Assembly (NCBI GenBank): GCA_956465555.1
Contig: OY101131.1
Location: forward strand, 881,469 to 945,468
DNA from: Nitzschia sp. pyKryTriq1
Lineage: Eukaryota; Bacillariophyta; Bacillariophyceae; Bacillariales; Bacillariaceae
Length of the DNA stretch: 64,000 bases
Direction: 5' to 3'
In this document: piece after piece, positions 5,059 through 29,123 of the stretch
Layout: every line of letters begins with the position of its first letter
How positions within the stretch are numbered: position 1 is the first letter of the stretch
Translations under genes and position numbers: made by a program
The notes under the pieces: generated by a model
The model's input: the letters and a program-made list of their open reading frames with translations, nothing else
Databases searched by the model: none
Told to the model about the DNA's origin: nothing

Positions 5059-7419
5059 ATGAGACTTAACACCAGCAAAACCGACAGGAGCAGTACCAAC
5101 TACACCATACAAACACTGTTTACTCGTCCTCCTCGCCGACGACGACGAGCAATCGCAGTCGTTGTGTTCGCTGGACTTGTACTCGCACTGCAAATGGACA
5201 CGTTGCTCAAGTCCCAATCATTGTGGTACGATCTCGCTGAAACTGGTGCGATCGACGACAAATTCCTCACCCCGCCAACCACCACCATCGCAGCAGCAAC
5301 AGCAACAACAAGGTGGACGAAAAAGTTGTGGCTTCTTACCTGCGAAACACGAAGAGATAGCGGCAATTTGAAAGGCTGGATGCAAAGTGCCGTACGATTT
5401 AAAAACAGCAAGCTGAATCGGAACCTTGCTGCTAGTCGTGAATGGCAAAGTTACAGTACTAACAGTGACAGAGACATTGACAGTGATGTTGACGAGATGA
5501 TTCGAATCCATAACATTTGCAGTGGTGGGAAAACATGGGAAGGGGATTTGGTGAAGGTACGGGCGCTTCTGGATTTTCTCTCGAACAACGTTTCCGATGA
5601 AAACTCGATCGTCATCTTCACCGATTCAGTCAGTCGGTTCAATCCGTACGCCTTTAGTGTTTCTGAAGTACTGCAAGCCTACGACCAAGCCCGTCACGGT
5701 CGTCCCATATTGGTCAGTGGCGAGGCGTCCTGCTCGATAGGTGTGCGCTGCAACTTGGATATTCTCGACACACTATATCCAGAAGCGACAGATGAAGGTT
5801 CCTTCTGTCCTCAATTCTTAAATTCAGGACAATTTATGGGGACCATGCCACGTATTCAGAACATGCTTGAACTCATGCTAAAAGACCGACAGGAACAAAT
5901 GGAACAAGGAGTCTCCATTAATAGCGACGAACATCTGCTTGCTAGATTTCGTGCCAATCACCTAGGACAAATGGAAATTGACTACGAGGCATCGGTATTT
6001 CGAAATCTGGCAGTTGGAAAACTTGATCCTAACGTTAAGCAAAAAGGTGGTAAAACCTGCGGACGTGCCAAAATAAGAAGATGCGGTGACGCAAAAATCC
6101 CATATACCGGAAAAGTCAATCCTCTCTCACTGTCGATTGAAATGGATCCAGTCCCAGGCTGCACATTATCTACAACGCCGTTTTCCCTTCACGAGTCTGG
6201 TGTCTCCGAGTTATCATTATTCAGTGATCTGAAAAGATTTGACAATAAGTTAAACTTGGCATTGGCGCAGGATCCCAACGCTCCTGTGGTAGGCGCCGAT
6301 CCTGCAGGGGGTGCTGGTACTACGGATCCAAGAAGAAAGAAGAAAAGGAAGGCGGTGGTGGTGGATATTCTCAGCATAGCATCCAATTCGCGCAAAAGCT
6401 ACTACCAAACTCAGCAGCGCACTTGGGCGAACCACAGTTTGGTTCGGAACTTTATGTACGTCACCGAAGATTTGGACGATCCGACATCGGCCTGCCGGAA
6501 GATGTCTGTGGACGTTGCCGTGCAAATTCTTGCTTGGTGTGAAGATCAATACTCAGGGACGGAAGGGTCCTGGCTGATGAGACGCTACATGGCGCAGATG
6601 TTGCCTCGAAAGTGGTACACGGATAAAGACGATCCGGTGGCTTGGCTATGTGCACAGCGGCGCTTCCCATTGGGTCTGGCCACAATTATTCTAGGATACG
6701 GGAAAGAAGAAAGGAATGAGTCCCTACCAGACTATCTTTTAGTAGTCGACGATGATACATATTACAACATGGATCTTTTTTATGATTTGGTTGTCAGCTA
6801 CCGAGATTCAAACGATCCCTTTGTGGGCGCTGGCTGCCTTATCGACAAGCAAAAAGGACGACGCTTTGCTGATCCGAGTGGGTTCGTCTATCCCTTTGGG
6901 GGGTTCGGACTTACGTACTCAAAAGGAAGCCTCGAACGATTTCTGAAGCCCATACACATGCACGCTCTCAACAAGACGGGGGTTGATGATGATAGCTTGT
7001 GGGAAAGGTCCACTATTGCCACAATACAAAACGACAATTTGATCTATGAACGGGAATCCTTCCATGACGGTATGAGTGTGGCCGAGTTGATGGAGGCCTA
7101 CGTGAAAAAGGATCCTTTTCAAGATTTCTACAATTGGACTAGGGGTTATTGTTTCCATGGAGATTGGCTGCTGGCAGCGATGCAACAGCTATATAGACTG
7201 CACTCGTCTCTTCTCATGGACGCACTGTTGGACTCGCTATACATCCCTGCGCTAGAACGGCTACTATCAAGCGGTAACTGTTTGAACGGGGCTGGCAACT
7301 GCAGTAGGTCAGATCTTGCTTGCCACTATCAACGTCCATCCGACATGGAACAACTATCGATCGCCCTAGATGAATTCTCCACGAAAGAGCAAGCTCTGAA
7401 AAATAAGGATGGAAGATAG
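5059..7419 (+). CDS. Two-domain glycosyltransferase: PLOD-like GT plus GT31-like GT
   Basis: A single-exon type II membrane protein of 786 residues, presumably Golgi or ER. A basic N-terminus (PRRRRRAIAVVV) precedes a signal-anchor at about residues 30-48. Residues about 90-320 resemble the glycosyltransferase domain of lysyl hydroxylases/procollagen galactosyltransferases: IVIFTDS, then ILVSGEASCSIG, then FLNSGQFMGTMPRI. Residues about 430-700 resemble GT31 (Fringe/core-1 galactosyltransferase type): SRKSYYQTQQRTWANHSLV, the metal-binding LLVVDDDTYYN, and PFGGFGLTYSKGS. The first domain reads TDSVS where the PLOD family normally has a second Asp (xDSYD), so it may have altered or lost activity. 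The second domain's DDD is intact. It diverges from the coiled-coil gene and converges on the GT49-like gene. Confidence 0.8.
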   Translation: MRLNTSKTDRSSTNYTIQTLFTRPPRRRRRAIAVVVFAGLVLALQMDTLLKSQSLWYDLAETGAIDDKFLTPPTTTIAAATATTRWTKKLWLLTCETRRDSGNLKGWMQSAVRFKNSKLNRNLAASREWQSYSTNSDRDIDSDVDEMIRIHNICSGGKTWEGDLVKVRALLDFLSNNVSDENSIVIFTDSVSRFNPYAFSVSEVLQAYDQARHGRPILVSGEASCSIGVRCNLDILDTLYPEATDEGSFCPQFLNSGQFMGTMPRIQNMLELMLKDRQEQMEQGVSINSDEHLLARFRANHLGQMEIDYEASVFRNLAVGKLDPNVKQKGGKTCGRAKIRRCGDAKIPYTGKVNPLSLSIEMDPVPGCTLSTTPFSLHESGVSELSLFSDLKRFDNKLNLALAQDPNAPVVGADPAGGAGTTDPRRKKKRKAVVVDILSIASNSRKSYYQTQQRTWANHSLVRNFMYVTEDLDDPTSACRKMSVDVAVQILAWCEDQYSGTEGSWLMRRYMAQMLPRKWYTDKDDPVAWLCAQRRFPLGLATIILGYGKEERNESLPDYLLVVDDDTYYNMDLFYDLVVSYRDSNDPFVGAGCLIDKQKGRRFADPSGFVYPFGGFGLTYSKGSLERFLKPIHMHALNKTGVDDDSLWERSTIATIQNDNLIYERESFHDGMSVAELMEAYVKKDPFQDFYNWTRGYCFHGDWLLAAMQQLYRLHSSLLMDALLDSLYIPALERLLSSGNCLNGAGNCSRSDLACHYQRPSDMEQLSIALDEFSTKEQALKNKDGR

Positions 7420-7560
7420 ATCACCGAACTGGACACCGCAAGTATGCGTGGGTACTCTCACTAAAAGAGTGCATTGCTGGCGATTGAACTCACTGTTGGT
7501 GTTGGGATATGGCAAATGAAAAGCAGTCCTGAATCTACGATCGCTTACAATAGAAATATA

Positions 7561-9009
7561 TCAAAAGTCTTGTATCGGATATTGTTCATCCAAATACTTT
7601 TCAAATGCCTTAAATTTGATGTCGTTGTCCATGTGTTGCCCGTGATTGAGGTTAGTGGGATGGGGTAAATGAAAGACAAAAAAGTCCCACAAGCTTCCGA
7701 ACAAATACCCAGCGCGGTCCAATTCTTGAAACCACGATAGCTTGTTTTGCCCATAGCCTCGAAAGTCATTCCAATAACTGGGAATGCCAGGACGGTAGGC
7801 CAAAACATAGGGTTCAAAGAGTGGTTGGTAAAAGATCGGATAATAAGGAGAAGGCGTAGTGGTGGAAGTCGAACTCATCGTGTTGGTGGGTGCCATCATG
7901 ATCTCATCGACAACGGGTTCAAACCATTTGGTAAAGTTGGTCGGACCATGTCCGGGCGGGAACATTTTTACTTGGAAACTTTGTGCTCGCTTCGCTTCAA
8001 CCAGACGAAATAATTCAAGCTTGGAAGCGGGCAGTTGGTCAGGAGTAAGCTTGGAAGCGGGCAGTTGGTCAGGAGTACGCTTGGAAGCGTGCAGTGGGTT
8101 AGGGTCGTAGCCTTCAAAGGCCGGTAGCACCATGACGAGCTTCTTCCGTCTCATTTCCTCTGCCATCCTACCCTCTTCGTCGTCAAAAAGGAGGGTGTGT
8201 AGTTTGGAGTAGCAGTCGGCCGGGTGGGGGATAAAATCGACATCCAGAGCGAGAATATAGTCACTGTCGCATTGAGCCATGGCCAAGTTGCGCAAGAGAT
8301 TGTGAGGATACGGCAACGGTCCCTCTTTGGAGTTGGTATATTCCATCATGACGTGAATCGATGTATTTCGTAACGTTTCCCGATGCTCCTGTAAAAAGGT
8401 CTCCAGAGTGGCAATCTCATCGGGAGTGCTCCTGGTCTCACTGCTGCTGATCTCGTTGATATGCAGAGCCAGCGACGCCGGACCGTTCCAGTATCGCAGC
8501 TGGACCAGGAAGGTCTCTAATTTGAATAGGGTACCGTGTGCTAGCAAGACAATGTCCCGAGAGTTTGGTTTCTCGCGTGGTTTCCAATGAGCCAACACCT
8601 TTTGAGATGTTTGGCCCGGCGGCGTCTCCTCCTTTAATTGTTTCCAAAGAAGCCGCAGCACGGTATTGCCTGGACCGGGTGATGATGCTAATGTTTGTTC
8701 TTTAGATGGATCAAAGTGCGCCTCACTACTTTCGGAAGGAGACCATTTGTGGTCGTACGTGTAGTTGTGGATTGTATCATCTTGGCGGGCCACCAGCATC
8801 GTCGGCCCATCAAAATCAATTACGGCAGGGCGATATTCTGGCACAAAGCGCAGTGCTCGCCTGATCCCCGCAACATTGAAGAAGACTAGGACGAAAATAC
8901 CAATTACTATCCGAGATGTGCGTCGGCGACGAGCAGGAGCCCCTCGTCGGTCTTCCCTGTCCTCCTTGGCGCTGTTAGGCGCTTGTATTAACACTCTTAC
9001 CACCACCAT
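7561..9009 (-). CDS. GT49-like (LARGE/B4GAT1-type) glycosyltransferase
   Basis: A type II membrane protein of 482 residues with the start placed at the ATG at 9009; the frame runs further up only from a GTG. The arrangement is a short basic cytoplasmic tail, a signal-anchor (IVIGIFVLVFFNVAG, about residues 35-49) and a lumenal domain. GT49 hallmarks appear in order: YPHNLLRNLAMAQCDSDYI, the LALDVDFIP motif with DVD at about 256-258, MVLPAFEGYD, then LFEPYVLAYR, NDFRGYGQNKLSW and a terminal FVFHLPHPTN. GT49 enzymes in animals add glucuronic acid or xylose/GlcA repeats; the sugar used here is unknown. Three 30-nt tandem units at 8017-8106 insert a DQLPASKLTP-type repeat after the AFEGYDPN motif. 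The gene is tail-to-tail with the gene ending at 7419. Confidence 0.85.
   Translation of the reverse strand: MVVVRVLIQAPNSAKEDREDRRGAPARRRRTSRIVIGIFVLVFFNVAGIRRALRFVPEYRPAVIDFDGPTMLVARQDDTIHNYTYDHKWSPSESSEAHFDPSKEQTLASSPGPGNTVLRLLWKQLKEETPPGQTSQKVLAHWKPREKPNSRDIVLLAHGTLFKLETFLVQLRYWNGPASLALHINEISSSETRSTPDEIATLETFLQEHRETLRNTSIHVMMEYTNSKEGPLPYPHNLLRNLAMAQCDSDYILALDVDFIPHPADCYSKLHTLLFDDEEGRMAEEMRRKKLVMVLPAFEGYDPNPLHASKRTPDQLPASKLTPDQLPASKLELFRLVEAKRAQSFQVKMFPPGHGPTNFTKWFEPVVDEIMMAPTNTMSSTSTTTPSPYYPIFYQPLFEPYVLAYRPGIPSYWNDFRGYGQNKLSWFQELDRAGYLFGSLWDFFVFHLPHPTNLNHGQHMDNDIKFKAFEKYLDEQYPIQDF
8017..8106 (-). repeat. 30-nt in-frame tandem repeat inside the GT49-like gene
   Basis: Three 30-nt units begin at 8017, 8047 and 8077. 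The first two are identical and the third has diverged. They encode a ten-residue repeat of the type KLTPDQLPAS in what looks like a surface loop. Confidence 0.9.
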
Positions 9010-9804: not shown

Positions 9805-9938
9805 TGTGTGAATGGGGTGAGCGATGATAAGTCATAATGCCACGTGGAAGGGTTGGATGACTTGAGAGAGTCGAATGAGTCATGAAAAGTAGGTCGAAGA
9901 TCGGTTCACTCCCTCTGATGTTGTTGGTGCGTCTTGAA

Positions 9939-10222: not shown

Positions 10223-10298
10223 AATTCCGCATTGCTCGAGGGCATTCCGGGCAAGAAGTGTTTGCCCGAGCGTGCGCTTTTGGCTTTTGACCCATGCC
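10223..10298 (+). repeat. Local repeat R2 (left half, 76 bp, identical to R1)
   Basis: Identical to 9939-10014. It ends with the 22-bp segment (10277-10298) that recurs at 11417-11438, and it supplies the first available ATG (10294) of the following ORF. Confidence 0.9.
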
Positions 10299-11430
10299 AG
10301 CAATAGCAATATCTATATTAGAACAGAATAGTAGAGGTACTTACTGTTCAACCGTTACATGTTGTATAATAGTAATGACGTACGATGTTGTGTACGTCCG
10401 TATATGTTCGACAAGGTTTGATGACGACTGGCGTATGACGTCATCAGTATGTCCTTCTGTCCTGATCGAGGAAATTACGCGCGGAGCCACGCACACGTTA
10501 GTCGCCAAGGGTTCGAATTTTGTGCACACAAGCAATGTGAGAGCCTTGATGCTCCAACATCTCGAGGAGTTCTTGGATATTTACGAGAAACGACCTGACA
10601 AGGTGAACTTGTGCGGGATTCGAATCAATCATGCACTGGCACTCTTTTTGACGCTTAAAGTCCTACAACCCACTGCCATAATTGAGTCGGGTGTCAACGC
10701 GGGCCAGTCGACATATTTCATGCGGGCGGCGGCTCCCTACGCTCGGATCTATGCAGTTGATCCTCTCGACAAGCCCATTTGCGGACAAACAAGTCGATGG
10801 ATCGATACTCAAGGGCCCGTGCAATACTTCACCGGACGCAACTTTAAAGATGTTGAACAAATTGATTGGGCTTCCAAGATCCAGTCTGGTGAAATGGACA
10901 CAAACAGAACCTTGGTCTTTTTGGACGACCATTTAGTCGTCTTTGATCGGATCGCGGTTTTCATGAAATTCGGCATCCGCCATGTTTTGCTCGAAGATAA
11001 TTGCAAGGTCGGAGAGGGTGGGACAGTCAAAGATCGTGCGGGATTTACCCCAAAGCAAATGTTCAACCGTAGAGATGACGATTCGGCTTACCTATGGAAT
11101 AATTTGGTGAGCTATGCCGAGTTCCCGCCATTGGTTGCTCCCATCCTAGCGAAACGTTGGAAGGGAGTGCGAAAGGCAGCCGGTGGATTTCTCTTTGCTA
11201 CCGACAGCAACGTCGATATTGTGCCGCCTATTCTGCAAGCGCACAATGTTCAAGACGATATGCAACTATATGAACGAATTTGCAAGCAGCTAGGTATCGA
11301 CCCTCTCTTAGAGGACGACCAAAGTTACATGCAGATTATGAATTACAACCAGATTGCCTATTTTGAGTTGGCTCCCATGGCACCTCGAATAGTCGAACGA
11401 ATACAAATTCGTACCACTTTTGGCTTTTGA
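10294..11430 (+). CDS. SAM-methyltransferase-like protein lying inside a split repeat
   Basis: The 378-residue frame contains a class I Rossmann-type core: an IIESGVNAGQSTYFMRAAAP segment resembling motif I (E/DxGxxxG), then RIYAVDPLDK, then LVFLDDH and RHVLLEDN. It resembles methyltransferase/hydroxylase-like proteins found with polysaccharide genes, and the substrate is unknown. The first ATG (10294) lies in repeat R2 and the stop lies in repeat R3, so both ends are supplied by repeat DNA. The first roughly 50 residues look non-native. The conserved part starts near MTSSVCPSV (ATG at about 10437), which may be the true start. Unlike its neighbours it has no membrane anchor. It may be a 5'-truncated gene or have a missed upstream exon. 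Confidence 0.55.
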   Translation: MPAIAISILEQNSRGTYCSTVTCCIIVMTYDVVYVRICSTRFDDDWRMTSSVCPSVLIEEITRGATHTLVAKGSNFVHTSNVRALMLQHLEEFLDIYEKRPDKVNLCGIRINHALALFLTLKVLQPTAIIESGVNAGQSTYFMRAAAPYARIYAVDPLDKPICGQTSRWIDTQGPVQYFTGRNFKDVEQIDWASKIQSGEMDTNRTLVFLDDHLVVFDRIAVFMKFGIRHVLLEDNCKVGEGGTVKDRAGFTPKQMFNRRDDDSAYLWNNLVSYAEFPPLVAPILAKRWKGVRKAAGGFLFATDSNVDIVPPILQAHNVQDDMQLYERICKQLGIDPLLEDDQSYMQIMNYNQIAYFELAPMAPRIVERIQIRTTFGF

Positions 11431-11596: not shown

Positions 11597-13120
11597 TTAG
11601 ATTCCAGACAACAACTCGACGCTTCCATTTTCCACCGTCAATAATCTATTATTGACCGCTCGATGGCCATGCTTTTGGATCTTCTGTTTCCAAAAATTAC
11701 CATCGGGAAGTCGATCATAGATCCACGAATCGTCGGGTGGGGTTTGATTGTACAGTTGAACATATCTCCATAGTAAACCGGGCAGCAAGATGTAGGTCTT
11801 CAAACGCAACTCGGGCGTGTCCGCCATGAAGAACCTCTCGTACTCGTCACTATCGTTGAACCTGCGGTCGCGATACATGGACCACTGAAATTCCTCGACT
11901 GTGTGATCATGGTTCGTCCAATACCAATAATTGGGATGATCCGCTGACGACATGTCGCAGGGCTCTATCAGGGGGTGACTTCCAATCCAATGTTCGGGCC
12001 GCCACCTGCTGGTACCAAGCACCCACGGTTGCTCTCCCTTTTCGAGAAAATGAAAGAAACCTTCCGATTCGAGTTTCTGCACCTGTCCCGCCAATTTGGT
12101 CATTCGAGATTTGTACTCCATGGGGTGATGTAACCGGCGAATGTACTTGCAGGAAGCAATGAAGAAATTACCAGGAAACAACATGGTGAACATCCTCGGT
12201 GGAGCCGAAAATTGCAAGCCACACACGTTGCAACTTTCGTCGGGAGGCTTGGCGCAGTCTCGGGACATGATAGCGTCCGTCATGGACCTCCTCCATCTAT
12301 CGTTATTGATATAAGGATGATAGGACCCTTTATTGTGCAAGTAGACAACTTTGGTATTTGTTTCTTCTTTGTCTGCTTCTTCATCATCTGCTTGATGATG
12401 ATTCCTAGCACAGAACTCATGCAGATTCGATAATGTGTCCAGTTCTCCACCCCATGGAATAGTGTTTGAAAGAATGCACTTTAAGGAATTTGCTGCTGAT
12501 GATGGTGATACTTGGTCGCAAAGGTCATCGATAAAGTTTTGATCCACCGTCAGCGAGGATGAGGTGGTCGATGCACCACCGGTACCGCCACCACCACCAC
12601 CACCACCACCACCAGCAGCGACAGATGACGATGAGGCGATTCCGTACCTTCCAACCAATGTGAAAAATATGGTTGTATTTTGAGTCCCTACGTACGAGCG
12701 ACTGATTTGTTGTAGCTGTTCGGAAACAATCCCCCAAGAGACTCTTTCGAATCTCCCTTTCCTGGGGTTGTCGGTCGGTGGCACGTACACATTGAAGAAT
12801 ACGGATACACGCTGCTTTGCTCGTCTGGTGAGGGGTGGATTTTGAGTTGTGGGGATGCTGATTCTTTCCCCAGATACTATTGGTCGAATACTACCACCGG
12901 CACCGGCACCAGCAGTATTGGAATTGGAACTGGAATCCATATCCATGCCACTAGCGTGATGTTGTTGTAACCTCATCAGATCGCTCTCCATCAAGACTCC
13001 TAATCTCCGAAACACAAAGATGTATTGGAACCAAACACTGGCCGCCAGAATGAACCATGGCCATGATGATGGGTGGCAGAACCGCAGCGGCCTTTTGCGA
13101 TTGCTAATTCTCAATCTCAT
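11597..13120 (-). CDS. Putative Golgi enzyme, YxHNKGS family, copy 1
   Basis: A 507-residue type II membrane protein starting at the ATG at 13120, with a signal-anchor near residues 19-38 (WPWFILAASVWFQYIFVF). The lumenal part shares a series of blocks with the protein at 15314-16912: FFNVYVPP near its start, KVVYLHNKGS followed by NNDRWRR, a CNVC pair, FPGNFFIASCKYIRRL, EHWIGSHPLIEPCDM, then LLPGLLWRYVQLYNQTPPDDSWIYDRLP. The HNKGS block faintly recalls the IHTK block of RgpF-type rhamnan-synthesis proteins. I do not recognise the family otherwise, and it lacks a clear DxD. A (Gly)n insertion is encoded by a GGT/GGC microsatellite near 12580-12612. Context suggests a glycosyltransferase, but this is inference. 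Confidence 0.75.
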   Translation of the reverse strand: MRLRISNRKRPLRFCHPSSWPWFILAASVWFQYIFVFRRLGVLMESDLMRLQQHHASGMDMDSSSNSNTAGAGAGGSIRPIVSGERISIPTTQNPPLTRRAKQRVSVFFNVYVPPTDNPRKGRFERVSWGIVSEQLQQISRSYVGTQNTTIFFTLVGRYGIASSSSVAAGGGGGGGGGGTGGASTTSSSLTVDQNFIDDLCDQVSPSSAANSLKCILSNTIPWGGELDTLSNLHEFCARNHHQADDEEADKEETNTKVVYLHNKGSYHPYINNDRWRRSMTDAIMSRDCAKPPDESCNVCGLQFSAPPRMFTMLFPGNFFIASCKYIRRLHHPMEYKSRMTKLAGQVQKLESEGFFHFLEKGEQPWVLGTSRWRPEHWIGSHPLIEPCDMSSADHPNYWYWTNHDHTVEEFQWSMYRDRRFNDSDEYERFFMADTPELRLKTYILLPGLLWRYVQLYNQTPPDDSWIYDRLPDGNFWKQKIQKHGHRAVNNRLLTVENGSVELLSGI

Positions 13121-13608: not shown

Positions 13609-14916
13609 ATGGTGATAAGACTCGATGCTGATGCAAATATTATAGTAGGTCGTCCCTACATTGCCGGTAAAAGAAGATTGGGGTTGAACGCACCCCGTGG
13701 ATACACGAGACGATCCGTCGTTTATACGCTGATTTTGGTGGTGACCGGCCTCGCCCGTTCGTATATGGTGCTGCGGGTGAAAACCAATGGAGATGGAACA
13801 TGGTGGAAAGAGCAACAAATCAACGCCGGTAAGCACAGGCACAGCAACTTGGACTGTCTACAACGTAGGGGGTCAAGTGGTGAATGGATGTTGGACTGGG
13901 ACTATGCCAATCGAAGTAATTATCCCAACCATGGCAGCTACACCACATGGCATTTGGCGGAGCAAAAGTTTCAACCATCTCTAGAAGAGCCATTTCGAAT
14001 GGCGACAGCATGGAGATGGGTCGACGACAGCTGTCCTCTTACCGAAATTTCTCACGAAGGTTTTTGCCAGGCGTGCGAGGATCTGAGAATCCGACGGATT
14101 CTTATCATGGGCGACTCTCTGTCCATCGAATTCGCACAATCAATTCAATCCTTATTGGGCTTTGCACCAAGGAGTACTGGTTTCAACGCAAGGTTCAAAC
14201 CAGTCCCTATTCCGTGTCCGCAAGGGTTTGATATTGTTTTTCTGACGCTCAGGCGTAGTTCATCCTCAGACTTCGTAAACCTTGCTATGACGGACATAGC
14301 TGGTAGAGCGTTCATCGAGACACGAACAGCAATTATTGCAAATCTAGGTGCTTGGTTTCACAGCATGGATGAATATCGCCAATCATTTGATGCGCTACTG
14401 GACTGGATTGACTCACTCGATAGTGATGCAATTGTCCCTTTTTTTCGGCCTACCATACCCGGTCATACTGGTTGCAAACCAAACAATGGAAACGCATCAT
14501 TCCTTCCCGTGCATTATGAGTGGCCGCCATTGTCATTTCATTCGGAGCCCTATCGTTCCTATGGTGAATATGTGCAGGATGAAAAACGGCTCAGAGAGTT
14601 ATACGTTTCCAATGATGCCGAGGAATACCGCTGGGACTATTTTGAGAGCTTCAATCGATACAGTTTCGACAAGATCAAAAGCCGAGCCTGCAACCACAGT
14701 GTGACCAACATACACTGGCTAAATGTCTACAATTCCTCCATTCTTCGACGCGACGGTCACGTAGGGTTTGGTGATTGTCTGCACTACTACCTGCCAGGTC
14801 CCATTGACTGGTGGACCCATTTTTTCCATTCGGCCCTCCTGGATTTAAATTCTGTGGAACACCAAAAGAAGAACGAGACAACAAAAGATGCTGATTGGTC
14901 TTCAATGTGCCCTTGA
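13609..14916 (+). CDS. TBL/PC-esterase-type putative glycan O-acetyltransferase
   Basis: A single-exon type II membrane protein of 435 residues from the ATG at 13609; the frame extends upstream only to a GTG. A signal-anchor lies at about residues 37-53 (SVVYTLILVVTGLARSYM). The lumenal region carries W-R-W-x-D-x-S-C-P, then RRILIMGDSLSIEF with the GDS triad block at 168-170, FFRPTIPGHTGC, and a C-terminal DGHVGFGDCLHYYLPGPIDW with Asp382 and His384. This order (GDS block then DxxH/DCxHWCLPG block) defines the PC-esterase superfamily, including plant TBL/ESK1 polysaccharide O-acetyltransferases and CASD1-like enzymes. The acceptor glycan is not known. Its position between the two YxHNKGS genes suggests decoration of the same product. 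Confidence 0.8.
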   Translation: MVIRLDADANIIVGRPYIAGKRRLGLNAPRGYTRRSVVYTLILVVTGLARSYMVLRVKTNGDGTWWKEQQINAGKHRHSNLDCLQRRGSSGEWMLDWDYANRSNYPNHGSYTTWHLAEQKFQPSLEEPFRMATAWRWVDDSCPLTEISHEGFCQACEDLRIRRILIMGDSLSIEFAQSIQSLLGFAPRSTGFNARFKPVPIPCPQGFDIVFLTLRRSSSSDFVNLAMTDIAGRAFIETRTAIIANLGAWFHSMDEYRQSFDALLDWIDSLDSDAIVPFFRPTIPGHTGCKPNNGNASFLPVHYEWPPLSFHSEPYRSYGEYVQDEKRLRELYVSNDAEEYRWDYFESFNRYSFDKIKSRACNHSVTNIHWLNVYNSSILRRDGHVGFGDCLHYYLPGPIDWWTHFFHSALLDLNSVEHQKKNETTKDADWSSMCP

Positions 14917-16427: not shown

Positions 16428-16472
<45 letters not shown>

Positions 16473-16912
16473 GCAGTATTTGTCAAAGCGTCGATCTGTT
16501 GTTCGTGGGGGACAAAGGCTCCTCCTTTCCATTCGTCGCTGAATCGTCGAAGGTAGGCAGCATGGCCCGATACCACAAGAAATCCCACGACGAGAGTCGC
16601 CATCTTTTTCCGTAGACGATTCCGGAGACCCGGAAGCCAGACTGCTGCTGCGGCTGCTGCTGTTGCTGGATCCGCCGTGTTTGGTTCTATTTGGATTGCT
16701 GAGACGCTCATCATGCTCCTGCTGCCTGTAACTGCAGTGTTCAATAATAGAGCATAGAGCAACATACAGTGGAGCAAGAAGGTCCTCGCAATAATGGCAC
16801 CTTCCGCTGCATCCCGGGTACCGACGCTGAACGCCGCATACCTACTAGTACTGTTAGATTTGCCCTTGTATAGTCGGGGAGGAGGGACGGAAGAAGGACA
16901 GACTGCAGACAT
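15314..16912 (-). CDS. Putative Golgi enzyme, YxHNKGS family, copy 2
   Basis: A 532-residue protein from the ATG at 16912. Two hydrophobic stretches lie near residues 44-62 (FLLHCMLLYALLLNTAV) and 105-120 (MATLVVGFLVVSGHAAY). The second is preceded by RLRKK and could be the real signal-anchor, so translation might also start downstream. A (Thr)n run encoded by a TAG/ACT microsatellite follows (about 16420-16462). The lumenal blocks match copy 1: SLAIFYNIFVSPLN, VIYIHNKGSFS, a CNVC pair, GNMFVAECDYVQRLIPP, EHWVYSHPSVRPCDV and FLLPGRLYEYRALYGQAP followed by SWIYHR. Copies 1 and 2 share block order and spacing but are well diverged, so the duplication is old. Specific activity unknown. Confidence 0.75.
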
Positions 16913-18597: not shown

Positions 18598-20624
18598 CTA
18601 GTCTTTGCAGAACGCCAAGCCATATATATTGAAATTGGAGCCGGACGTTAAAGATGCATCAAAGAAAATAGTGTCGCCAACTTGTGCAGGGGCACCACCA
18701 GGCATGGGAAACTTGAATGGGACATGTACGCTTGTTTGAATGTCATGGTAGCCTGAAACCTCAAACGATGCCTGGAGTTCCGTAGTAGTATCACTTTCAA
18801 CTTCGGTTCCTCGCTCGATTCGAACCGTAATGGACAAGTTCGTCCCCACAAACGTGGGCCCGTAGCTTTGCATTACCACAACAGTAAGAGCAGACACCTC
18901 AAGAGTTGAAACGGTGATTTTAAGTGAAAAGATTGCATTTTCTTTCTTTGCATACCAGCCAGTTCGCGGATGTCGAACTGGGTATCCCTCCGCCGCCCAC
19001 CCGTCCACATGGGTCAGTTTGGGCTTCAATACCCGAACGAGATCGCGAGGCCATTCGATTCCGGTCACGCGGTACGACAGCCATGCATATTCGCAAACAC
19101 TCGTGATATTGTTCGGCGATGAGAAGAACTTGGTATCCTCCGATTGGCAACGCAATTCTTTTTCAACGAGGCGAGCCTTCCAGTCAGCGAGCATGGACTG
19201 CTCCGTTGTTTCCTTTTTCATGTAGCCAATATATTTGGAGGGCGCTCCCCTTGTCTCCATCTGCTCCAATGTCAAGACCGCCCTTTCTTCCGTGGTGTTG
19301 GCGGTGTTGGGCCACCAATGCTCCAAGTGGGCCGACGCTTCAATTCCACTGCTTGGATCCTGATAACACGCGTCCACAATTTCATTCAGAAAGCTATACA
19401 TGACAGTCCATGCCAAACCAATATGATATCCTGTACCCATGTGCATGCCAAATTTAGATCCCACCAATGGATCTGGTTGGCCGTCTTGTTCAACATTGCG
19501 ACTATACAGTTCATGCCCTACAACATTGCCAAAACTGATCGACATGAGTTGGTACCACTTCGCAATGGCATGGACGCGAGACGACTGTTCCACTGGTTTG
19601 TACACTCCTCCTAGCCCGCCGTAAAAGTCATCTAGCAAGATCACCAACGGTAAGTCCGCATCACAATATCTTAGCTTATGCGCCGATTGGACGATATCTT
19701 GCATGTGTCGAAACAAAACCTCGTTGTCGTCGTTCTTATGAAACGCATCGTTGACGGTGTGGGCTAGTAGAATAATGTGTGGCATCGATGAGTCTTCAGG
19801 GAGCAACCGGTACTCCAATGCAAGATTGGCAATATCCGACGAGGTTCCGCCGGCGGCCATATTGGTCACCCGTACCCTCGATTCTCCTTGGAATAGCACC
19901 TGATTCCATATATTTTGCAATCTCGCAGCCCAGGCGCAGGTGTAGGTTTCTCTTCGGGACAAGTGCGGGATTCCTTGAGGCACTGCCGTGCAGTCTATCC
20001 CCTGTGTCACCGAGCCTCCCGAAACAAGTATTTCAAGGGGTTCCCCGGTCGTTGGGTAGTCCGATAGAATCTGAGCGATCCGTCGGATGGCGGCAATGCC
20101 AGGTCGGCTGGTAGTTGCTTTGCGGAGCCTTTCCGGAGTATAATACGAGTACAATTGATCGACCCAAGCTCGAAAATTTGAATCGCTACCGATTTGATCC
20201 GGAAAATACGAAGCGTGTAGTGTGCTGTTTCGGAAATGCTGTTCCCTCCAGGTGAACGCAGTGGATGGTGTTTTATCGAATTGGGAACATATGGAGTACC
20301 TGGAGTCCGTCGTGGGACCAGGATCTGCAGCAGCAGTAGTTTCGTCTGCTAATGTCGACGCACCCGTTGTTGGTTTTCTAGCTACTCCGGCCCAGGATTG
20401 TAAGTTCACACGATACGCTCCTCGAATAGCATCGTCGCCGGTTCCTACTATGTGTGTAACGCACGGTTATCGTAATTGACTTGGAGGCCTAACAGCACAC
20501 CAATGGCGACGACCGCGATGCAACGCCATGCCCTCAATGACTGCCGCCGGCTGCCCCCCAAAACCATTTGGTGCCGAAGACTCGCCGTCTGGGTCGACTC
20601 TTTTGCCTTCAATCGTACTGGCAT
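18598..20624 (-). CDS. Two-exon membrane-anchored SGNH hydrolase-like protein
   Basis: Exon 1 (20624-20465) encodes 53 residues including a signal-anchor (RCIAVVAIGVLLGLQVNYDN). The donor GTGCGT lies at 20464, and a phase-1 acceptor GAGTAG ends at 20382, giving an 83-nt intron and exon 2 at 20381-18598. The total is about 647 residues. Exon 2 carries SGNH blocks: I as EILVSGGSVTQG (Ser about 177), the Gly block as NMAAGGTSSD, the Asn block as LAHTVNDAF, and a distal GMHMGTGYHIGLAW supplying a candidate catalytic His. A C-terminal beta-rich domain follows (EVSALTVVVMQSYGP onwards). Likely an esterase or acyltransferase of the secretory pathway; substrate unknown. The intron model is inferred from phase and signals. 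Without it, exon 2 has no membrane anchor and starts only at a GTG. Confidence 0.7.
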
Positions 20625-21102: not shown

Positions 21103-24099
21103 ATGACGAGTACTCGTCCATTTACAAGTACAAGTACAAGTACAAGTACAAGTACAAATGATGCTGCCGATAAAGCTGATGCGACTGATGAGGAAGGAGA
21201 AACAAAGAAGACGAGTGGTGATCATGGCACTACAAGTACAACAGCAGTAATACCACAACCACCACCCTCACCAACGCCGCCGCTGCCCCCACCGACAGTA
21301 TTGATATCGCCGTCATCTGAACCACTACCACAACCACCACCACAACAACAACAACAACAACAATTAGCACCTTCAATATTCTCCATTCCGAAACAACCAC
21401 GACAGTCGCTGGAGGAGGAGGAGCCTCCCAGAGCAAAGACACCATCAAGCAAATTCAATACAACAACAACAACTACTACTACTACTACTAGTAGAGACAC
21501 GCCAACTATCCGTTCATTCGCATCATCAGTATCAGCATCAGCATCAGCATCGGCATCGGCATCAGCATCGTTCTCGGCATCGTTATTGGCATCGGCATCC
21601 AATTCAACGTCATCATTGAGTCCCGCCAAGAAAGTGAGAAAATCCATATTTTTATCATCTCCTGCTATGAAAAATGGTGCTCTTCATCGCAAATCCCACA
21701 AGCGCCTGGCATCGATTGACGAGGGAGGAGTAGGAGGAGGAGGAGAAGAAGGAGGAGAAGGAGGAAGAGCACGGCAACAACCTGATCATGGCCAGCAGCA
21801 ACAACAACAACAACATGATCGTCTTTCTTCCGACGAATTATCATCCCTCTGGTCGACGATTGGATCATCATCGATATTTAACAGTCATCATGTACCAAGA
21901 AGCGGCAGTGGGAGTGATGATAGGGATAGGAATGGGAATAGAATGACGACAATGAGCAAGTTTAAACAAGATCAAGAGGAGCAGTTGGTCCTTCCTACCA
22001 AAGAGATGATGATCCTCGAAGCCAAACTCAATAGTGCGTTCGACCAAGAGAGCATGACAACAACGACGACGTCCACGTCGAATACGTCGAATGGTGACCA
22101 GCAGACAACAGCTACCGCCGCCACCACCACCACCACAACTCCGGGGTCGTCGTCGTCGTTAGCAGGAGCAGCAGCAGGAGCAGCAACCACAGCATTGTCG
22201 GAAAAACAAAAGAAGGAGTTCATTCAAGAATACATGTGGAAATTAGAACAAGAACGAGAATCGTTATTGGCCCAATGGAAGGCTGAATGGGAAGCTGAAC
22301 GTCAATTTCTCTTACGTGAACATGCGCAACAACAGCAGCAGCAGCAACAACAACAGCGGCGTCATCCTTTTGCCATATTCCAACGCTTGTTTCAAACATC
22401 TAAATCTTCTTGTTGGGAACCTTGTATTGAAGCCATCACTTCCATGTTGGCCACTGCCGAAGTCTTTGTCGCCAATCTCCCACTGACGATTGGCGCGGTG
22501 GGCCTTTCATGGGTGACCATGGGAACGGTCTGGTTCAAATTCATGGAAGAAACGGTAGATTTTTGCAAACCGGTTCATTATTATTCTCCCAACTGCGTCT
22601 TTCCCGAATTTCCTGGCTGTTTTGACTGTAGTGGTGGTGTTGACGACAACGACGAGACACCAACATCATCATTATCATCAACACAATACATCTATCAATG
22701 GGCGCTTTACTTTCATTTTGGTTGTTCCATCTTTGCGGGAATATGCTGCAGTCTCTTCTTTTGTAAGTTACTGGTAGCCGGAAAGCTTGTGGCTGACGAT
22801 CTTCGCAATCCCACGACTTCCACGCCCATGGGAGTGGTATGCATCGCTACCGAATGCGTCTTTGCGGGACGGGCGGGTATGGTGGGGGAAGCCATTGTCC
22901 TGATAACCTCTTGGTTTCATTTCTTTCTGGCCTTTTGGTTCCTTTACATGGCCGTCCTCCGCTTTGGACTTTGGCCGGATCCCGGATGGTTCCCCAATAC
23001 GGTCGGTCTGACGTATGGCGCCGTCAAGACATTTCTTTACTTTCCTCAAGTCGGTCTGTTCTTTCTCGCCTTTGCCGTCCTGCTCTTCTTTTCGATATTC
23101 TTTATTAGTGTCGTTCGAGTCGCCTTGTGCAATCCCAAAATCATTGCCGCCCCCGTGGCCTGGATTGGACTGAGCGCTCCAAGCATTACCATGTACGCCT
23201 TGACGTTGGTAGCTCAGCCTACTAGCCGTGACCGGGAACAATTGCTGCAGCACGACGCCGACTTGTCGCTGCATCATCGTGAACTATTGGTCCGATACTA
23301 TCTACCCTTGCAACATACCATGATGGTCTTGTCCCTCATAGGACTGGCATCGGCCGTAAGCGCTCTCATTGTACGATGGCCGACGTTTTCCAAGAAACCG
23401 TTCAGTCCGGCCCATGTCGCCTTTTGTTTCCCCACGCTATCCCACACCAATGCCGTCCAAGCCTACCGCGGCGCCGTCAATGCCTTTTCCACCAATTTGA
23501 GTCCTCTCTTTCATCGGGCCTTGTTTGCCTATTGGGTAGTCTTCTTGGTGGGTGGTACGGTGTTGAATCTGTACTTTACCACTCTTTATATGCAACGACT
23601 ACCATCATGGACCAAACTCGATATTGCCGACGAAGAAGAACCTCCGTCTCCCGAAGACACCTTTGTTCATGAAATGTTGGAAACGACCGGGGCGCATGAA
23701 ATGATGTTGCATCAACCATTCATGAGTCCGGCGGTATTGCAAGCCAACGAGGCGGGAACGCTACGAAGAGTACGACGGGGCACGCAAGAATTTCGCATCC
23801 ATGGTCCGTACATTCGAACAAGAAACGTTTCCGCGTTGGGATTTGATCCGACCATGGACTTGGAAGAATTGCGCAAGGAACGTGCCGAATTATTGGATTG
23901 GGTAGCCCGCAATGCTCCCCGAACCCGCAATCGTACCATGAGTAATCCCCTCTTTCTACTCGGAATCGGACAACCAGAACCACAACAACGAGGAGGTCGC
24001 GGTGGTGGTGGTGGTGGCGGCGAAAGGCCGTTCTATGGTACCTTTTCGAGGGGACATCAACGATCCTACACTACGACCCAGGTACTACCGCATGTTTAA
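21103..24099 (+). CDS. SLAC1/TehA (TDT) family anion channel-like protein with long low-complexity N-terminus
   Basis: A single exon of 998 residues. Residues 1-430 are low complexity (Thr, Ser, Gln, Gly and Ala runs coded by microsatellites) and end in a coiled, charged EYMWKLEQERESLLAQWKAE. About ten membrane segments follow at about 450-850: NLPLTIGAVGLSWVTMG, FHFGCSIFAGICCSLFF, LITSWFHFFLAFWFLYMAVL, GLTYGAVKTFLYFPQVGLFF, IGLSAPSITMYALTLVA and PFSPAHVAFCFPTLSHTNAV. The APSxxxxY and FSxxxxAFxFP patterns match the tellurite-resistance/dicarboxylate transporter-SLAC1 superfamily, whose plant members are guard-cell anion channels. The cytosolic C-terminus ends in a Gly-rich tail. A 33-bp piece of the 3' coding end is repeated downstream (24169-24203). 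It interrupts the glycan gene run and shares no obvious function with it. Confidence 0.65.
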   Translation: MTSTRPFTSTSTSTSTSTNDAADKADATDEEGETKKTSGDHGTTSTTAVIPQPPPSPTPPLPPPTVLISPSSEPLPQPPPQQQQQQQLAPSIFSIPKQPRQSLEEEEPPRAKTPSSKFNTTTTTTTTTTSRDTPTIRSFASSVSASASASASASASFSASLLASASNSTSSLSPAKKVRKSIFLSSPAMKNGALHRKSHKRLASIDEGGVGGGGEEGGEGGRARQQPDHGQQQQQQQHDRLSSDELSSLWSTIGSSSIFNSHHVPRSGSGSDDRDRNGNRMTTMSKFKQDQEEQLVLPTKEMMILEAKLNSAFDQESMTTTTTSTSNTSNGDQQTTATAATTTTTTPGSSSSLAGAAAGAATTALSEKQKKEFIQEYMWKLEQERESLLAQWKAEWEAERQFLLREHAQQQQQQQQQQRRHPFAIFQRLFQTSKSSCWEPCIEAITSMLATAEVFVANLPLTIGAVGLSWVTMGTVWFKFMEETVDFCKPVHYYSPNCVFPEFPGCFDCSGGVDDNDETPTSSLSSTQYIYQWALYFHFGCSIFAGICCSLFFCKLLVAGKLVADDLRNPTTSTPMGVVCIATECVFAGRAGMVGEAIVLITSWFHFFLAFWFLYMAVLRFGLWPDPGWFPNTVGLTYGAVKTFLYFPQVGLFFLAFAVLLFFSIFFISVVRVALCNPKIIAAPVAWIGLSAPSITMYALTLVAQPTSRDREQLLQHDADLSLHHRELLVRYYLPLQHTMMVLSLIGLASAVSALIVRWPTFSKKPFSPAHVAFCFPTLSHTNAVQAYRGAVNAFSTNLSPLFHRALFAYWVVFLVGGTVLNLYFTTLYMQRLPSWTKLDIADEEEPPSPEDTFVHEMLETTGAHEMMLHQPFMSPAVLQANEAGTLRRVRRGTQEFRIHGPYIRTRNVSALGFDPTMDLEELRKERAELLDWVARNAPRTRNRTMSNPLFLLGIGQPEPQQRGGRGGGGGGGERPFYGTFSRGHQRSYTTTQVLPHV

Positions 24100-24751: not shown

Positions 24752-26173
24752 CTATTCGTTGGCACGGTCTTGGCAACACGTCCTCCAATCACCAACCAAA
24801 CGCTCGATCGTTTTTCGAATTACGTCCTGTGACACACAAAGATTAACAGCTCTTGCTTGGTTGCGCTCCTGCAAGCTCTTTGGCCACGAATAGTTCGCGG
24901 CTTGGTCCGACAAGTACAAGTACGAGTAGCCAATGTCTGAATGCCTCGCTAGACTTCCAAAGAATGCCGGAATGAGGTATTTGGGTGGAAAGATCTCAAG
25001 TAGCTGGCTGCACTTGCCGTTTTTGGCCAGAAAGGGCAATCCGGTTAATTGAGCCCCGTGGGGACTGATCAAAATATCCGTCCTCTGAAAGAATTTCACC
25101 TGTTCCTCGAACGAGCTGCTTTCGAAATATTCCAGGTCGACTTGATGGTGAAATGAAATGTTCGCGAGTGTATTCACAAGTTGTGCAGGATATGTAATGG
25201 ATCGTCCTTTATTTGGCATACGATTCAATATTCCGATGCGAGGAAATAGCACAGCTGCGGGGCTGTCGTCATCGCGGTCTTTCATTCCACAAAGGGGTCG
25301 CTCAAAGGTGGTCATTTCTTCCATCTTAAAAAGGTAATTATGTGCTAGCTGGTTGAGCTCGTGGACGTGGGAAATGATGTATCCGTCACGAATGTAAAAT
25401 GCAGCCGAAGAAACATTGACGCCTGTTTGGTTGTATTTTTCGTAAAGGGAGTTTTGATCGAGAATCTCAACACCCATTTCGTTTTGTAGGAGCTGGAAAT
25501 ACCCCTTTAGAAAATTATTTTTGTCCAACTGTGATTTCGTGCGTGAGGACACTAGTAGAAATTTTGGTCGATCCCCTTCTTCATCTAGGGGTTGCTGGTA
25601 GAAGGAGTAGCACGCATAGAGCTGCTGCATGGAGTGGGGAAAATGGAACCAGTTCATGCCATTGTCAGTCTTGTATTCGCACACCAGGGGTTCGTTCCGG
25701 CGGGTAGCAGGAGCAGAGGATGTATCGAAAAATTGGTTTTCAGCAAATCGACCGGAGACTTTGTAGACGGGTTGGTGGGGGTCGGGTGTGCAATACTCGT
25801 CGTTCTTGTGGTTCGTCTCCTCGTCCTTGGCGGGAAGCTGGTGGGTCTCCTCAAGCAGCACCGTTGAGGAATGATTTAAGCTACCATTTTTTACCTCATC
25901 AAAATAAGTCCTCGTCGAGTTTTTACTCTTCTCCGCAGCAGCAAGAGGTGCTTGTTCAGAATGATTTGAGCTGCCATTTACCTCATCAAAATAAGTGCTC
26001 GTCAAGTTTTTACTCTTCTCCGCAGCAGCAAGAGCTGCTTGTTGAGTATTTGGCACCCCCTGAAGCTGAGAGAGCGTCCTGGAGCTTCGAAGCATGCAAA
26101 CAACGACCAGGCTCGGGATGAGGATCATCAATGCAGCCACCTTGATCGAAAACCGCTTGATCGAAACCCGCAT
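24752..26173 (-). CDS. GT61-like glycosyltransferase
   Basis: A 473-residue type II membrane protein from the ATG at 26173; the frame extends upstream only to a TTG. A signal-anchor lies at residues about 11-28 (KVAALMILIPSLVVVCML). The stem contains two copies of a roughly 30-residue unit (LAAAEKSKN, then TYFDEV, then NHS). The C-terminal half has GT61/DUF563 features: RIGILNRMPNKGRS, EEQVKFFQRTDILISPHGAQL with His at 372, then LLEIFPPKYL and HSDIGYSYLYL. GT61 includes plant xylan arabinosyl/xylosyltransferases and animal POMGNT2/EOGT. The donor sugar here is unknown. Many N-x-S/T sites sit in the stem repeat, consistent with a lumenal location. Confidence 0.85.
   Translation of the reverse strand: MRVSIKRFSIKVAALMILIPSLVVVCMLRSSRTLSQLQGVPNTQQAALAAAEKSKNLTSTYFDEVNGSSNHSEQAPLAAAEKSKNSTRTYFDEVKNGSLNHSSTVLLEETHQLPAKDEETNHKNDEYCTPDPHQPVYKVSGRFAENQFFDTSSAPATRRNEPLVCEYKTDNGMNWFHFPHSMQQLYACYSFYQQPLDEEGDRPKFLLVSSRTKSQLDKNNFLKGYFQLLQNEMGVEILDQNSLYEKYNQTGVNVSSAAFYIRDGYIISHVHELNQLAHNYLFKMEEMTTFERPLCGMKDRDDDSPAAVLFPRIGILNRMPNKGRSITYPAQLVNTLANISFHHQVDLEYFESSSFEEQVKFFQRTDILISPHGAQLTGLPFLAKNGKCSQLLEIFPPKYLIPAFFGSLARHSDIGYSYLYLSDQAANYSWPKSLQERNQARAVNLCVSQDVIRKTIERLVGDWRTCCQDRANE
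25869..26045 (-). repeat. 90-bp tandem duplication in the GT61-like stem
   Basis: Two direct copies begin at 25869 and 25959 with a few substitutions and a small indel. Both keep the reading frame and each adds N-glycosylation sequons (NxT/NHS) to the stem. Confidence 0.85.
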
Positions 26174-28043: not shown

Positions 28044-29123
28044 TCAATAGAAACCAATTCGATGTGTTCGATTGAAGGTAAGTACAAACAACAGATTTCC
28101 CTCGAATGAACATTCGTGATGCGATTTGACCCTACTTGATTCCAAGGTGGGGTGACATCCTTCCGAGAAGCCTTCGGACAACTGCTGTTGCATTAATTCG
28201 CCCATTCCACGAATATGGTCCCTTGGGTAGGCGTTGTTATGCGATGGATTCCACACATTGATATTATCGTACATCTTGAAGACAAATGGCTCCTCTAAAT
28301 TCGCTCTGTCAACCAGGTCACGTTGGGAAAGTGACCACGCTTGATCGTCCTTCATGGTCGAATACGGCAGATATTGATCCATTGATTTCTCGGCAAAGCA
28401 ATTTAGATTTGCATCGGCCCCATAAAGATACTTGGCACCTGTATACACCCTGCGGTAGTTGAAGGCGATGATCTTGGCCAGTTCCGTCTCATTTGCCAAT
28501 TGATCGAGCACTACCTGTTTGGGTTGGCTTACTTTCGTATCTCCGTCCATAAAACAATAGTGACTCTCGGGAGCTTCTCCGCGGAGCTTGGCGATCTTTC
28601 GTCTCCGGTTGGCGAGATAATACATGGTGTTTCGAGCAGTGGTCCACGTGGATCCTGGTAAATTGAACTGGTTGTTCGATGTATCGTTATAGGTCAAAAT
28701 TGTGTCGCACAGCTCTGGATTGCATTCTTTCCCCTTTCGAGTCGTCGGGCACAAACAAAAAAAATGCGCCGGCTTGTAGGAGGGGAGCTGGTTGTTGTTG
28801 TTGACAATAGTAGAGACAGGGATGGTGCCGCCGGTCGTGTTGTTATTTGAGCGGCTAGTACTACTTGTCGACGATGAGAAGAAGGCCAAGGGCTCGTCTC
28901 CTCCTCCTCCGTCGACTCGATATTCAGTGCAATCATGGTGCCATGCTGCATACTGTCCGGAGAAGAAAAACTGATTCGACAACCACAGAACAAACACCAC
29001 TGCCAACAAGAACGACCCTGGTGCATGCTTACGGGTAGTACTACTACTAGGCGCGTAGTAATACCGACGAAAGGGAAGAAAACTAGCTGGCGGGGGGTTT
29101 TCTTGACGGATAGTCATTTGCAT
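28044..29123 (-). CDS. Putative Golgi glycosyltransferase of unassigned family (DGD motif)
   Basis: A 359-residue type II membrane protein. A signal-anchor lies at about residues 36-54 (PGSFLLAVVFVLWLSNQFFF), then a Ser/Thr/Asn-rich stem and a compact lumenal domain. The visible blocks are HFFCLCPTTRKGKECNPELC, STWTTARNTMYYLANRR and HYCFMDGDTKVSQP with D193-G-D195 as a likely metal/nucleotide-sugar site, then IIAFNYRRVYTGAKYLYGAD and NCFAEKSMDQYLPYS. I know similar TAR...YCFMDDD-type proteins in algae only as hypothetical proteins, so the assignment is by motif and context. The C-terminal coding segment has a diverged copy at 24206-24255. Confidence 0.65.
   Translation of the reverse strand: MQMTIRQENPPPASFLPFRRYYYAPSSSTTRKHAPGSFLLAVVFVLWLSNQFFFSGQYAAWHHDCTEYRVDGGGGDEPLAFFSSSTSSTSRSNNNTTGGTIPVSTIVNNNNQLPSYKPAHFFCLCPTTRKGKECNPELCDTILTYNDTSNNQFNLPGSTWTTARNTMYYLANRRRKIAKLRGEAPESHYCFMDGDTKVSQPKQVVLDQLANETELAKIIAFNYRRVYTGAKYLYGADANLNCFAEKSMDQYLPYSTMKDDQAWSLSQRDLVDRANLEEPFVFKMYDNINVWNPSHNNAYPRDHIRGMGELMQQQLSEGFSEGCHPTLESSRVKSHHECSFEGNLLFVLTFNRTHRIGFY

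What the first reader, a model, noticed from the sequence alone, without database searches (positions are those of the whole stretch)
5059..29123. A 24-kb run of secretory-pathway glycan genes
Ten of the eleven genes between 5.0 and 29.1 kb encode predicted glycosyltransferases, acyltransferase/esterase-like enzymes or a methyltransferase-like protein. Eight of the ten are single-exon proteins with an N-terminal anchor (PLOD-like/GT31-like fusion, GT49, GT32, GT61, TBL-like PC-esterase, two YxHNKGS paralogues, DGD protein). A two-exon SGNH protein and an unanchored methyltransferase-like protein make up the rest. Clustering of distinct glycan families, rather than tandem paralogues, is unusual for a eukaryote nuclear genome and suggests a co-inherited pathway for one decorated glycan (transfer, then O-acetylation or O-methylation). 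The SLAC1-like channel is the exception.
Basis: partly seen in the sequence, partly recalled or inferred. Interest (0 to 1): 0.8.

Follow-up and report, generated by a model that had tools for sequence, protein, structure and literature searches.

The report
Diatom cluster of sugar-attaching enzyme genes
A stretch of one diatom chromosome is crowded with different genes for building or trimming sugar chains in the secretory pathway; the crowding is largely real, but two of the ten genes look damaged and nothing yet shows that they form one pathway.

Summary
The window is C17:881469-945468 of a 40.65 Mb, 20-contig genome, a diatom judging by silicon transporters at 8 places. The gene run exists. 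Five of eleven genes pass Pfam cut-offs as glycan enzymes (PLOD-GT plus Fringe, GT49, GT32-type, GT61, PC-esterase). SGNH is sub-threshold. The Pfam-less YxHNKGS protein gives a model with a GT-A-like fold. The methyltransferase-like and DGD proteins remain unverified.

Corrections: the SGNH gene is not two-exon but a frame-broken copy of an intact one-ORF gene on the same chromosome; the methyltransferase-like ORF begins with about 70 residues of dispersed repeat. The run has soft edges.

Against one inherited pathway: outside the run, 56 relatives from seven families co-locate no more than chance (P 0.21-0.35), and the closest copies are scattered. For partial linkage: on C12 the best HNKGS2 relative sits beside a GT61 copy, same order and strands.

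Best reading: a neighbourhood of Golgi cell-surface glycan genes built mostly by single-gene duplication, holding one older linked pair. A single pathway is unproven. Synteny in other diatoms and expression could not be tested here.

The parts
5059..7419 (+). 786-aa two-domain transferase: PLOD-type GT domain (residues 161-330) fused to a Fringe/GT31-like domain (550-632 matched); one N-terminal anchor
   Evidence: Pfam GT_PLOD E 1e-9 and Fringe E 8.7e-6, both over cut-off; anchor; GT31-like half copied at C17:874727-875776 (79%) and C6 (51%), PLOD-like half not found elsewhere
7561..9009 (-). GT49 (LARGE glucuronyltransferase-like) with LDVDF motif and anchor
   Evidence: Pfam E 2.8e-35; LARGE1 chain E 2.1e-18, LDVDF aligned to SDIDF; nearest copy C10:184828, 64% over 337 aa
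9245..9805 (.). inverted pair of ~105-b arms (9245-9352 / 9702-9805), mobile-element-like
   Evidence: 92.7% inverted match
10294..11430 (+). methyltransferase-like ORF; first ~70 residues are dispersed repeat, the rest single-copy, no profile
   Evidence: 26 further genome places match only residues 5-77; no Pfam/NCBIfam/PHROG/PDB match
11597..13120 (-). YxHNKGS protein 1 (HNKGS1), HNKGS1/C13 subfamily
   Evidence: family of 8 places; tree; fold inferred from HNKGS2 model
13609..14916 (+). TBL-like PC-esterase (putative glycan O-acetyltransferase) with GDS and DxxH
   Evidence: Pfam PC-Esterase E 2.3e-8; GDS at residue 168, DCLH at 389
15314..16912 (-). YxHNKGS protein 2 (HNKGS2), GT-A-like fold predicted
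   Evidence: model, PDB second look, BFVD; best relative C12:1342603, 49.5% over 319 aa
17055..18215 (+). GT32-type (OCH1-like) transferase with SDIDV motif and anchor
   Evidence: Pfam Gly_transf_sug E 4.9e-10; motif and anchor
18598..20624 (-). SGNH-type gene, frame-broken: N-terminal anchor piece (from 20624) and catalytic open frame (18601-20466) are in different frames
   Evidence: alignment to intact 680-aa copy at C17:623835-625874; GDSL E 2.8e-4, sub-threshold
21103..24099 (+). membrane protein (reader: SLAC1-like), the non-glycan exception; identity not confirmed
   Evidence: five hydrophobic stretches; no channel profile in Pfam
24752..26173 (-). GT61 transferase with HGAQLTG motif and anchor
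   Evidence: Pfam E 2.1e-13; near copies C6 80%, C16 78% (partial), C11 62%, C12 51%
28044..29123 (-). anchored DGD-motif protein, single copy, family unknown (transferase by motif only)
   Evidence: one place in genome; DGD at 193, anchor; no glycan profile
48194..49450 (-). SGNH-like anchored protein outside the run (label by eye)
   Evidence: no Pfam match supporting it; anchor
57192..58973 (-). GT34 transferase outside the run
   Evidence: Pfam E 4.7e-20

Best explanation
A neighbourhood, not a proven pathway. The locus is a stretch of a diatom chromosome in which genes for Golgi-type enzymes that build and decorate cell-surface or secreted glycans have gathered, mostly by duplication and relocation of single genes from different families. 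Around this sits at least one older linked pair (HNKGS2 + GT61) that was duplicated together to or from C12. Mechanistically, the intact genes would make type II Golgi membrane enzymes that transfer sugars (GT49-like glucuronic acid or similar, GT32-like hexose, GT61, GT31/PLOD-GT, HNKGS) and O-acetylate them (PC-esterase) on a wall or extracellular glycan such as the sulfated glucuronomannan reported from diatoms. Shown: gene content, families for five genes, fold for one HNKGS protein, duplications, the C12 pair, the two altered genes. Inferred: Golgi location, substrates, and that they act on the same class of glycan. That they act in one ordered pathway is not shown.
For: Five families over cut-off; GT49 to LARGE1; HNKGS2 GT-A-like model; anchors in 7 of 8. 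Copies scattered one by one: GT49 to C10 64%, GT61 to C6 80%, SGNH to C17:623.8 kb 83% aa, GT31 half to C17:874.7 kb 79%. C12 pair with same order and strands, 49.5% and 51% identical; chance of that specific pair about 0.0012, about 0.014 expected over 46 possible near-copy pairs. Repeat DNA at the MT 5' end and beside the GT31 copy. Diatom wall glucuronomannan: passages of PMC4584364.
Against: Direction and mode of duplication are not dated. The excess over background depends on labels that are not all verified. The MT-like and DGD genes have no relatives in this genome beyond the repeat, so 'gathering by duplication' is not shown for them. Head-to-head pairs with short gaps (HNKGS2/GT32 142 b, HNKGS1/PC-esterase 488 b) would also fit selected co-regulation.
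Confidence: 0.5

Rival explanations
1. One co-inherited pathway: the genes make and decorate one glycan (transfer, then O-acetylation and O-methylation), held together by selection for co-inheritance or co-regulation, as in metabolic gene clusters.
For: Distinct families side by side; short head-to-head gaps HNKGS2/GT32 142 b and HNKGS1/PC-esterase 488 b; paired HNKGS2 + GT61 counterpart on C12.
Against: No excess co-location of the families elsewhere (56 genes, P 0.21-0.35; at most 3 families in 65 kb, P 0.09). Two tailoring genes look broken or altered. Nearest copies scattered. Soft edges.
Confidence: 0.2
2. Mostly background: glycan and esterase-type genes are common on this chromosome, and the run is the extreme of an ordinary distribution plus generous labelling.
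For: Roughly 8 to 12 of 83 ORFs held from elsewhere on C17 look glycan-related by my count. With only the six Pfam-hit genes the excess does not survive correction. Strand pattern and GC3 ordinary.
Against: With the two HNKGS genes the excess is borderline, and with all ten it is strong. The comparison ORFs include the run's shoulder and a stretch chosen because it holds the SGNH copy, which raises the background.
Confidence: 0.15
3. A fast-turnover surface-glycan region with a role in recognition or virus resistance, like the small outlier chromosome of Mamiellales green algae.
For: Same kinds of genes (varied transferases with methyltransferase-like ones), recent copies, repeats, broken members. 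In O. tauri, chromosome 19 transferases change expression in virus-resistant lines (passages of PMC5082852).
Against: No GC difference: GC3 of 11 core ORFs equals that of 39 flank ORFs (p 0.50). Embedded in an ordinary chromosome. No variation or infection data.
Confidence: 0.12
4. Imported island from a virus or bacterium.
For: Single-exon genes; fold-level resemblance of HNKGS2 to phage and giant-virus proteins.
Against: No sequence relatives in the searches made: MT-like, DGD, GT61 and the HNKGS alignment in viral contigs, the HNKGS alignment in 84,980 prokaryote genomes, MT-like and HNKGS1 in plasmids, HNKGS proteins in phages. Normal GC3; relatives of most of the families elsewhere in the same genome.
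Confidence: 0.03

Closest known systems
Small outlier chromosome (SOC) of Mamiellales, e.g. Ostreococcus tauri chromosome 19 (PMC5082852, Bathycoccus PMC3491373; passages seen)
   Same: Crowded with varied glycosyltransferase and methyltransferase genes, local groups suggested to act on one glycan, recent copies, repeat elements
   Different: A whole small low-GC chromosome in green algae; here about 24-40 kb inside a normal-GC 1-Mb diatom chromosome; no virus-response data
Diatom metabolic gene cluster: domoic acid (dab) genes of Pseudo-nitzschia (PMC11499653, search listing and start of abstract only)
   Same: Unlike genes side by side in a diatom nucleus
   Different: dab is a defined small-molecule pathway; here no pathway, product or co-regulation is known
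LARGE1 (GT49 domain)
   Same: GT49 homology over residues 140-462 with aligned DxD
   Different: LARGE1 also carries a second transferase domain (recalled); the diatom protein has GT49 only
PLOD/LH3 GT domain and Fringe/GT31 transferases
   Same: Profile matches over cut-off for both domains in one ORF
   Different: The two are fused in one protein here; I did not establish whether this fusion is known
Plant TBL / PC-esterase O-acetyltransferases
   Same: Pfam PC-Esterase match, GDS and DxxH motifs, anchor
   Different: Distant; match limited to the C-terminal part of the profile; activity untested

Membership tests
Eukaryotic metabolic/biosynthetic gene cluster | adjacent genes of unlike families | tested here: met
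   five distinct glycan families over cut-off within 24 kb; two HNKGS of different subfamilies
Eukaryotic metabolic/biosynthetic gene cluster | conserved co-location | tested here: inconclusive
   within this genome: no general excess, one pair on C12; other diatoms not available
Eukaryotic metabolic/biosynthetic gene cluster | co-expression and one product | not testable with these tools
   no expression or chemistry data
Mamiellales-like outlier region (SOC) | base composition distinct from the rest | tested here: not met
   GC3 of core equals flanks, p 0.50, 11 vs 39 ORFs; GC profile flat
Mamiellales-like outlier region (SOC) | enrichment in transferase/methyltransferase genes | tested here: inconclusive
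   transferases enriched if all labels hold; the methyltransferase label is unverified
Mamiellales-like outlier region (SOC) | expression change in virus-resistant lines | not testable with these tools
   no such data
GT49 | Glyco_transf_49 profile and DxD | tested here: met
   E 2.8e-35, LDVDF aligned to LARGE1 SDIDF
GT61 | Glyco_transf_61 profile | tested here: met
   E 2.1e-13, over cut-off; weak EOGT match E 0.014
GT32 | Gly_transf_sug profile and DxD | tested here: met
   E 4.9e-10, SDIDV
PC-esterase / TBL | profile, GDS and DxxH | tested here: met
   E 2.3e-8 over cut-off; motifs
GT-A transferase (HNKGS proteins) | GT-A fold | tested here: inconclusive
SGNH hydrolase / acyltransferase | GDSL/SGNH profile over cut-off | tested here: not met
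   Lipase_GDSL_2 21.8 bits against cut-off 32.9; GGS in place of GDS
SAM methyltransferase (10294 ORF) | methyltransferase profile or fold | tested here: inconclusive
   no profile; single-sequence model unusable, pLDDT 32

The most novel reading that the evidence does not exclude
A diatom 'glycan supergene': eight or so intact Golgi transferase and acyltransferase genes on C17, nucleated by an ancient HNKGS2 + GT61 pair (also kept on C12), that together write one variable cell-surface glycan, with shared head-to-head promoters and frequent gain, loss and breakage of tailoring genes. It would be the diatom counterpart of the Mamiellales outlier chromosome, with a two-headed PLOD-GT/GT31 enzyme that could act like a disaccharide-building synthase.
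Probability: 0.17. Interest if true: 0.75.

Novelty: new variant of a known kind. Interest (0 to 1): 0.42.

Why it matters
Almost no enzyme is assigned to diatom wall and mucilage glycans, which matter for biofilms, carbon export and attack by bacteria and viruses (general knowledge; the wall glucuronomannan itself from passages of PMC4584364). If the run is a working set, it hands over candidate enzymes for one glycan in one place. If it is only a neighbourhood, it shows how such genes spread by single-gene copying, and it yields one testable pair (HNKGS2 + GT61) and a new-looking transferase family.

Tried and rejected
Rejected: two-exon SGNH (intact intronless copy). Strand alternation as a signal (9 of 10 in the run, 28 of 42 outside it, p 0.10). 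Foreign composition (GC3 p 0.50). SGNH + GT61 proximity on C5 (28 kb) and C14 (32 kb): those GT61 places are not among the near copies of the window's GT61, so I do not lean on them. A virus or bacterium as source: the searches found no relative.

Led nowhere: MT-like single-sequence model (pLDDT 32). PDB sequence searches for MT-like, the PLOD-GT/GT31 protein and SGNH gave no match; the HNKGS profile gave only three weak unrelated chains. PHROGs gave only weak hits without function. Among the VIA-align rows no family is excluded by absence. Papers: four searches for glycosyltransferase clusters or regions in diatoms or microalgae listed no diatom glycan-gene cluster among the rows shown; subscription journals are mostly missing from that library.

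Rows dropped before counts: I left out the genes inside the run and merged split matches (GT49: 13 matches to 10 genes, 9 outside the run), and treated the genome as one line. In the HNKGS tree 7 of 8 places were used (C9:349933 is split and was left out). The count of 83 ORFs covers 190.9 kb of C17, cut at 10-kb edges; the Pfam tally of those 83 showed only 25 of 102 families, so I scanned 10 chosen by eye (7 of 10 hit, 1 over cut-off). One search's gap for SGNH to channel used a guessed start; one search corrects it to 478 b.
Full report
Where it is. The window is C17:881469-945468 of a 40.65 Mb, 20-contig genome. C17 is 996,348 b long and ends on the right in (TTGGGG)n. The genome carries silicon transporter genes at 8 places, seven of them at 873-885 bits, so I take it for a diatom. 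A TTAGGGTTGGGG telomere is reported for Nitzschia inconspicua (passages of PMC8329260); I did not identify the species.

What is in the run. Eleven main ORFs fill 5059-29123. Over Pfam cut-offs: GT_PLOD (E 1e-9) plus Fringe (E 8.7e-6) in one 786-aa protein; GT49 (2.8e-35); PC-Esterase (2.3e-8); Gly_transf_sug, the GT32 type (4.9e-10); GT61 (2.1e-13). The GT49 protein aligns to the LARGE1 transferase at E 2.1e-18 with its acidic motif in register. The esterase keeps GDS and DxxH. SGNH is below cut-off (E 2.8e-4). The two YxHNKGS proteins, the DGD protein and the methyltransferase-like protein have no glycan profile.

Two genes are not as described. The SGNH gene has an 83%-identical (89% in DNA over 2.1 kb) copy at C17:623835-625874 that is a single intronless 680-aa ORF. 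Aligned to it, the window copy differs in length by two bases in a short repeat just after its anchor, which puts anchor and catalytic part in different frames. That is a lesion or an assembly error, not an intron. The methyltransferase-like ORF starts with a dispersed repeat: 26 other places match only its first 77 residues at most. So it may have lost its own start, and its lack of an anchor means little.

How unusual. I compared the run with 83 ORFs of at least 180 aa from 190.9 kb of C17 that I held. If all ten labels stand, the excess is strong (p 5e-8 to 2e-6). With the six Pfam-hit genes only, p is 0.001-0.01 and fails a rough correction for choosing among 1690 windows. With eight it is borderline. 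The shoulder of the run also holds such genes: GT8-like (E 2.2e-4, sub-threshold), Methyltransf_22-like (2.3e-4, sub-threshold) and a GT31-like copy 79% identical to the fusion's second half, all 5-11 kb left of the window. GT34 lies at 57192-58973.

Is it inherited as a unit? Genome searches gave 19 places for GT61, 10 genes for GT49, 14 places for GT32, 5 for PC-esterase, 8 for HNKGS, 4 for the GT31-like part and 4 for SGNH (lower bounds). Outside the run, 56 of these genes form 1, 3 and 6 mixed-family pairs within 6, 35 and 65 kb, against 0.38, 2.1 and 4.0 expected (P 0.32, 0.35, 0.21); the best 65-kb stretch holds 3 families (P 0.09). So these families do not cluster in general. Nearest copies lie apart: GT49 on C10 (64%), GT61 on C6 (80%), C16 (78%, part) and C11 (62%), SGNH at C17:623.8 kb, GT31 half at C17:874.7 kb.

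The exception is C12:1,342,603-1,348,953. There the best relative of HNKGS2 (49.5% over 319 aa) and a GT61 copy (51%) lie under 4 kb apart, in the same order and strands as in the window, with a second, stop-interrupted GT61 piece and a sulfotransferase-like ORF (label by eye; no Pfam match) between them. Chance for that pair is about 0.0012, and about 0.014 would be expected over 46 possible near-copy pairs. It was noticed after the fact, so I take it as moderate evidence that HNKGS2 and GT61 were linked before they were copied.

Regulation. Head-to-head gaps are short for HNKGS2/GT32 (142 b) and HNKGS1/PC-esterase (488 b), and 478 b between SGNH and the channel-like gene. The 9-of-10 strand alternation is within the habit of this region (28 of 42, p 0.10). 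No expression data were available.

Origin. GC3 equals the flanks (p 0.50). No relatives turned up in viral contigs for MT-like, DGD, GT61 and the HNKGS alignment, in prokaryote genomes for the HNKGS alignment, in plasmids for MT-like and HNKGS1, or in phages for HNKGS1 and the C12 HNKGS. The other genes of the run were not searched for this.

Reading. The intact genes look like type II Golgi enzymes (hydrophobic stretch near the N-terminus in 7 of the 8 claimed). Diatom walls hold sulfated glucuronomannan with variable O-methylation (passages of PMC4584364), so a GT49-like glucuronyl step, a GT32-like step and an O-acetyl step are plausible on such a polymer; that is inference. The nearest precedent is the Mamiellales small outlier chromosome, rich in transferase and methyltransferase genes and tied to virus resistance in Ostreococcus tauri (passages of PMC5082852; of PMC3491373). 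The diatom run lacks its base-composition mark. I conclude: a real but soft-edged neighbourhood of glycan genes, partly decaying, with one older linked pair. A single pathway is possible but not shown.

Noticed in passing
C12:1296406-1403010 (outside window; L044 covers 1341901-1348900): Five copies (67-93% over their main matches) of a sulfotransferase-like ORF (label by eye, no Pfam match) within 107 kb, interleaved with GT49, HNKGS and GT61 places: a second candidate glycan neighbourhood.
   Followed up: partly
5059-7419: Single ORF fusing a PLOD-type GT domain to a Fringe/GT31-like domain; the PLOD-like half has no other match in the genome.
   Followed up: partly
C17 right end (L020): Telomere-like (TTGGGG)n rather than TTAGGG.
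   Followed up: partly
9066-10300: Repeat-rich gap between GT49 and MT-like: inverted arms, a dispersed repeat also found near the GT31 copy at C17:~876.5 kb, and 125 b upstream of GT49 shared (89.6%) with its C10 copy.
   Followed up: partly
C15:593477-629974: Four GT32-type matches within 37 kb, unlike the mixed families of the window.
   Followed up: no
L038 and L039 (C1:4152897, C3:3017298): Two nearly identical GT49 genes on different chromosomes, a recent duplication.
   Followed up: no
C1:79892-317295: Five silicon transporter matches within 240 kb.
   Followed up: no
L003-L008 (C17:605-665 kb): Neighbourhood of the intact SGNH copy also holds a GT8-like and a sulfotransferase-like ORF, both below Pfam cut-off.
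   Followed up: partly
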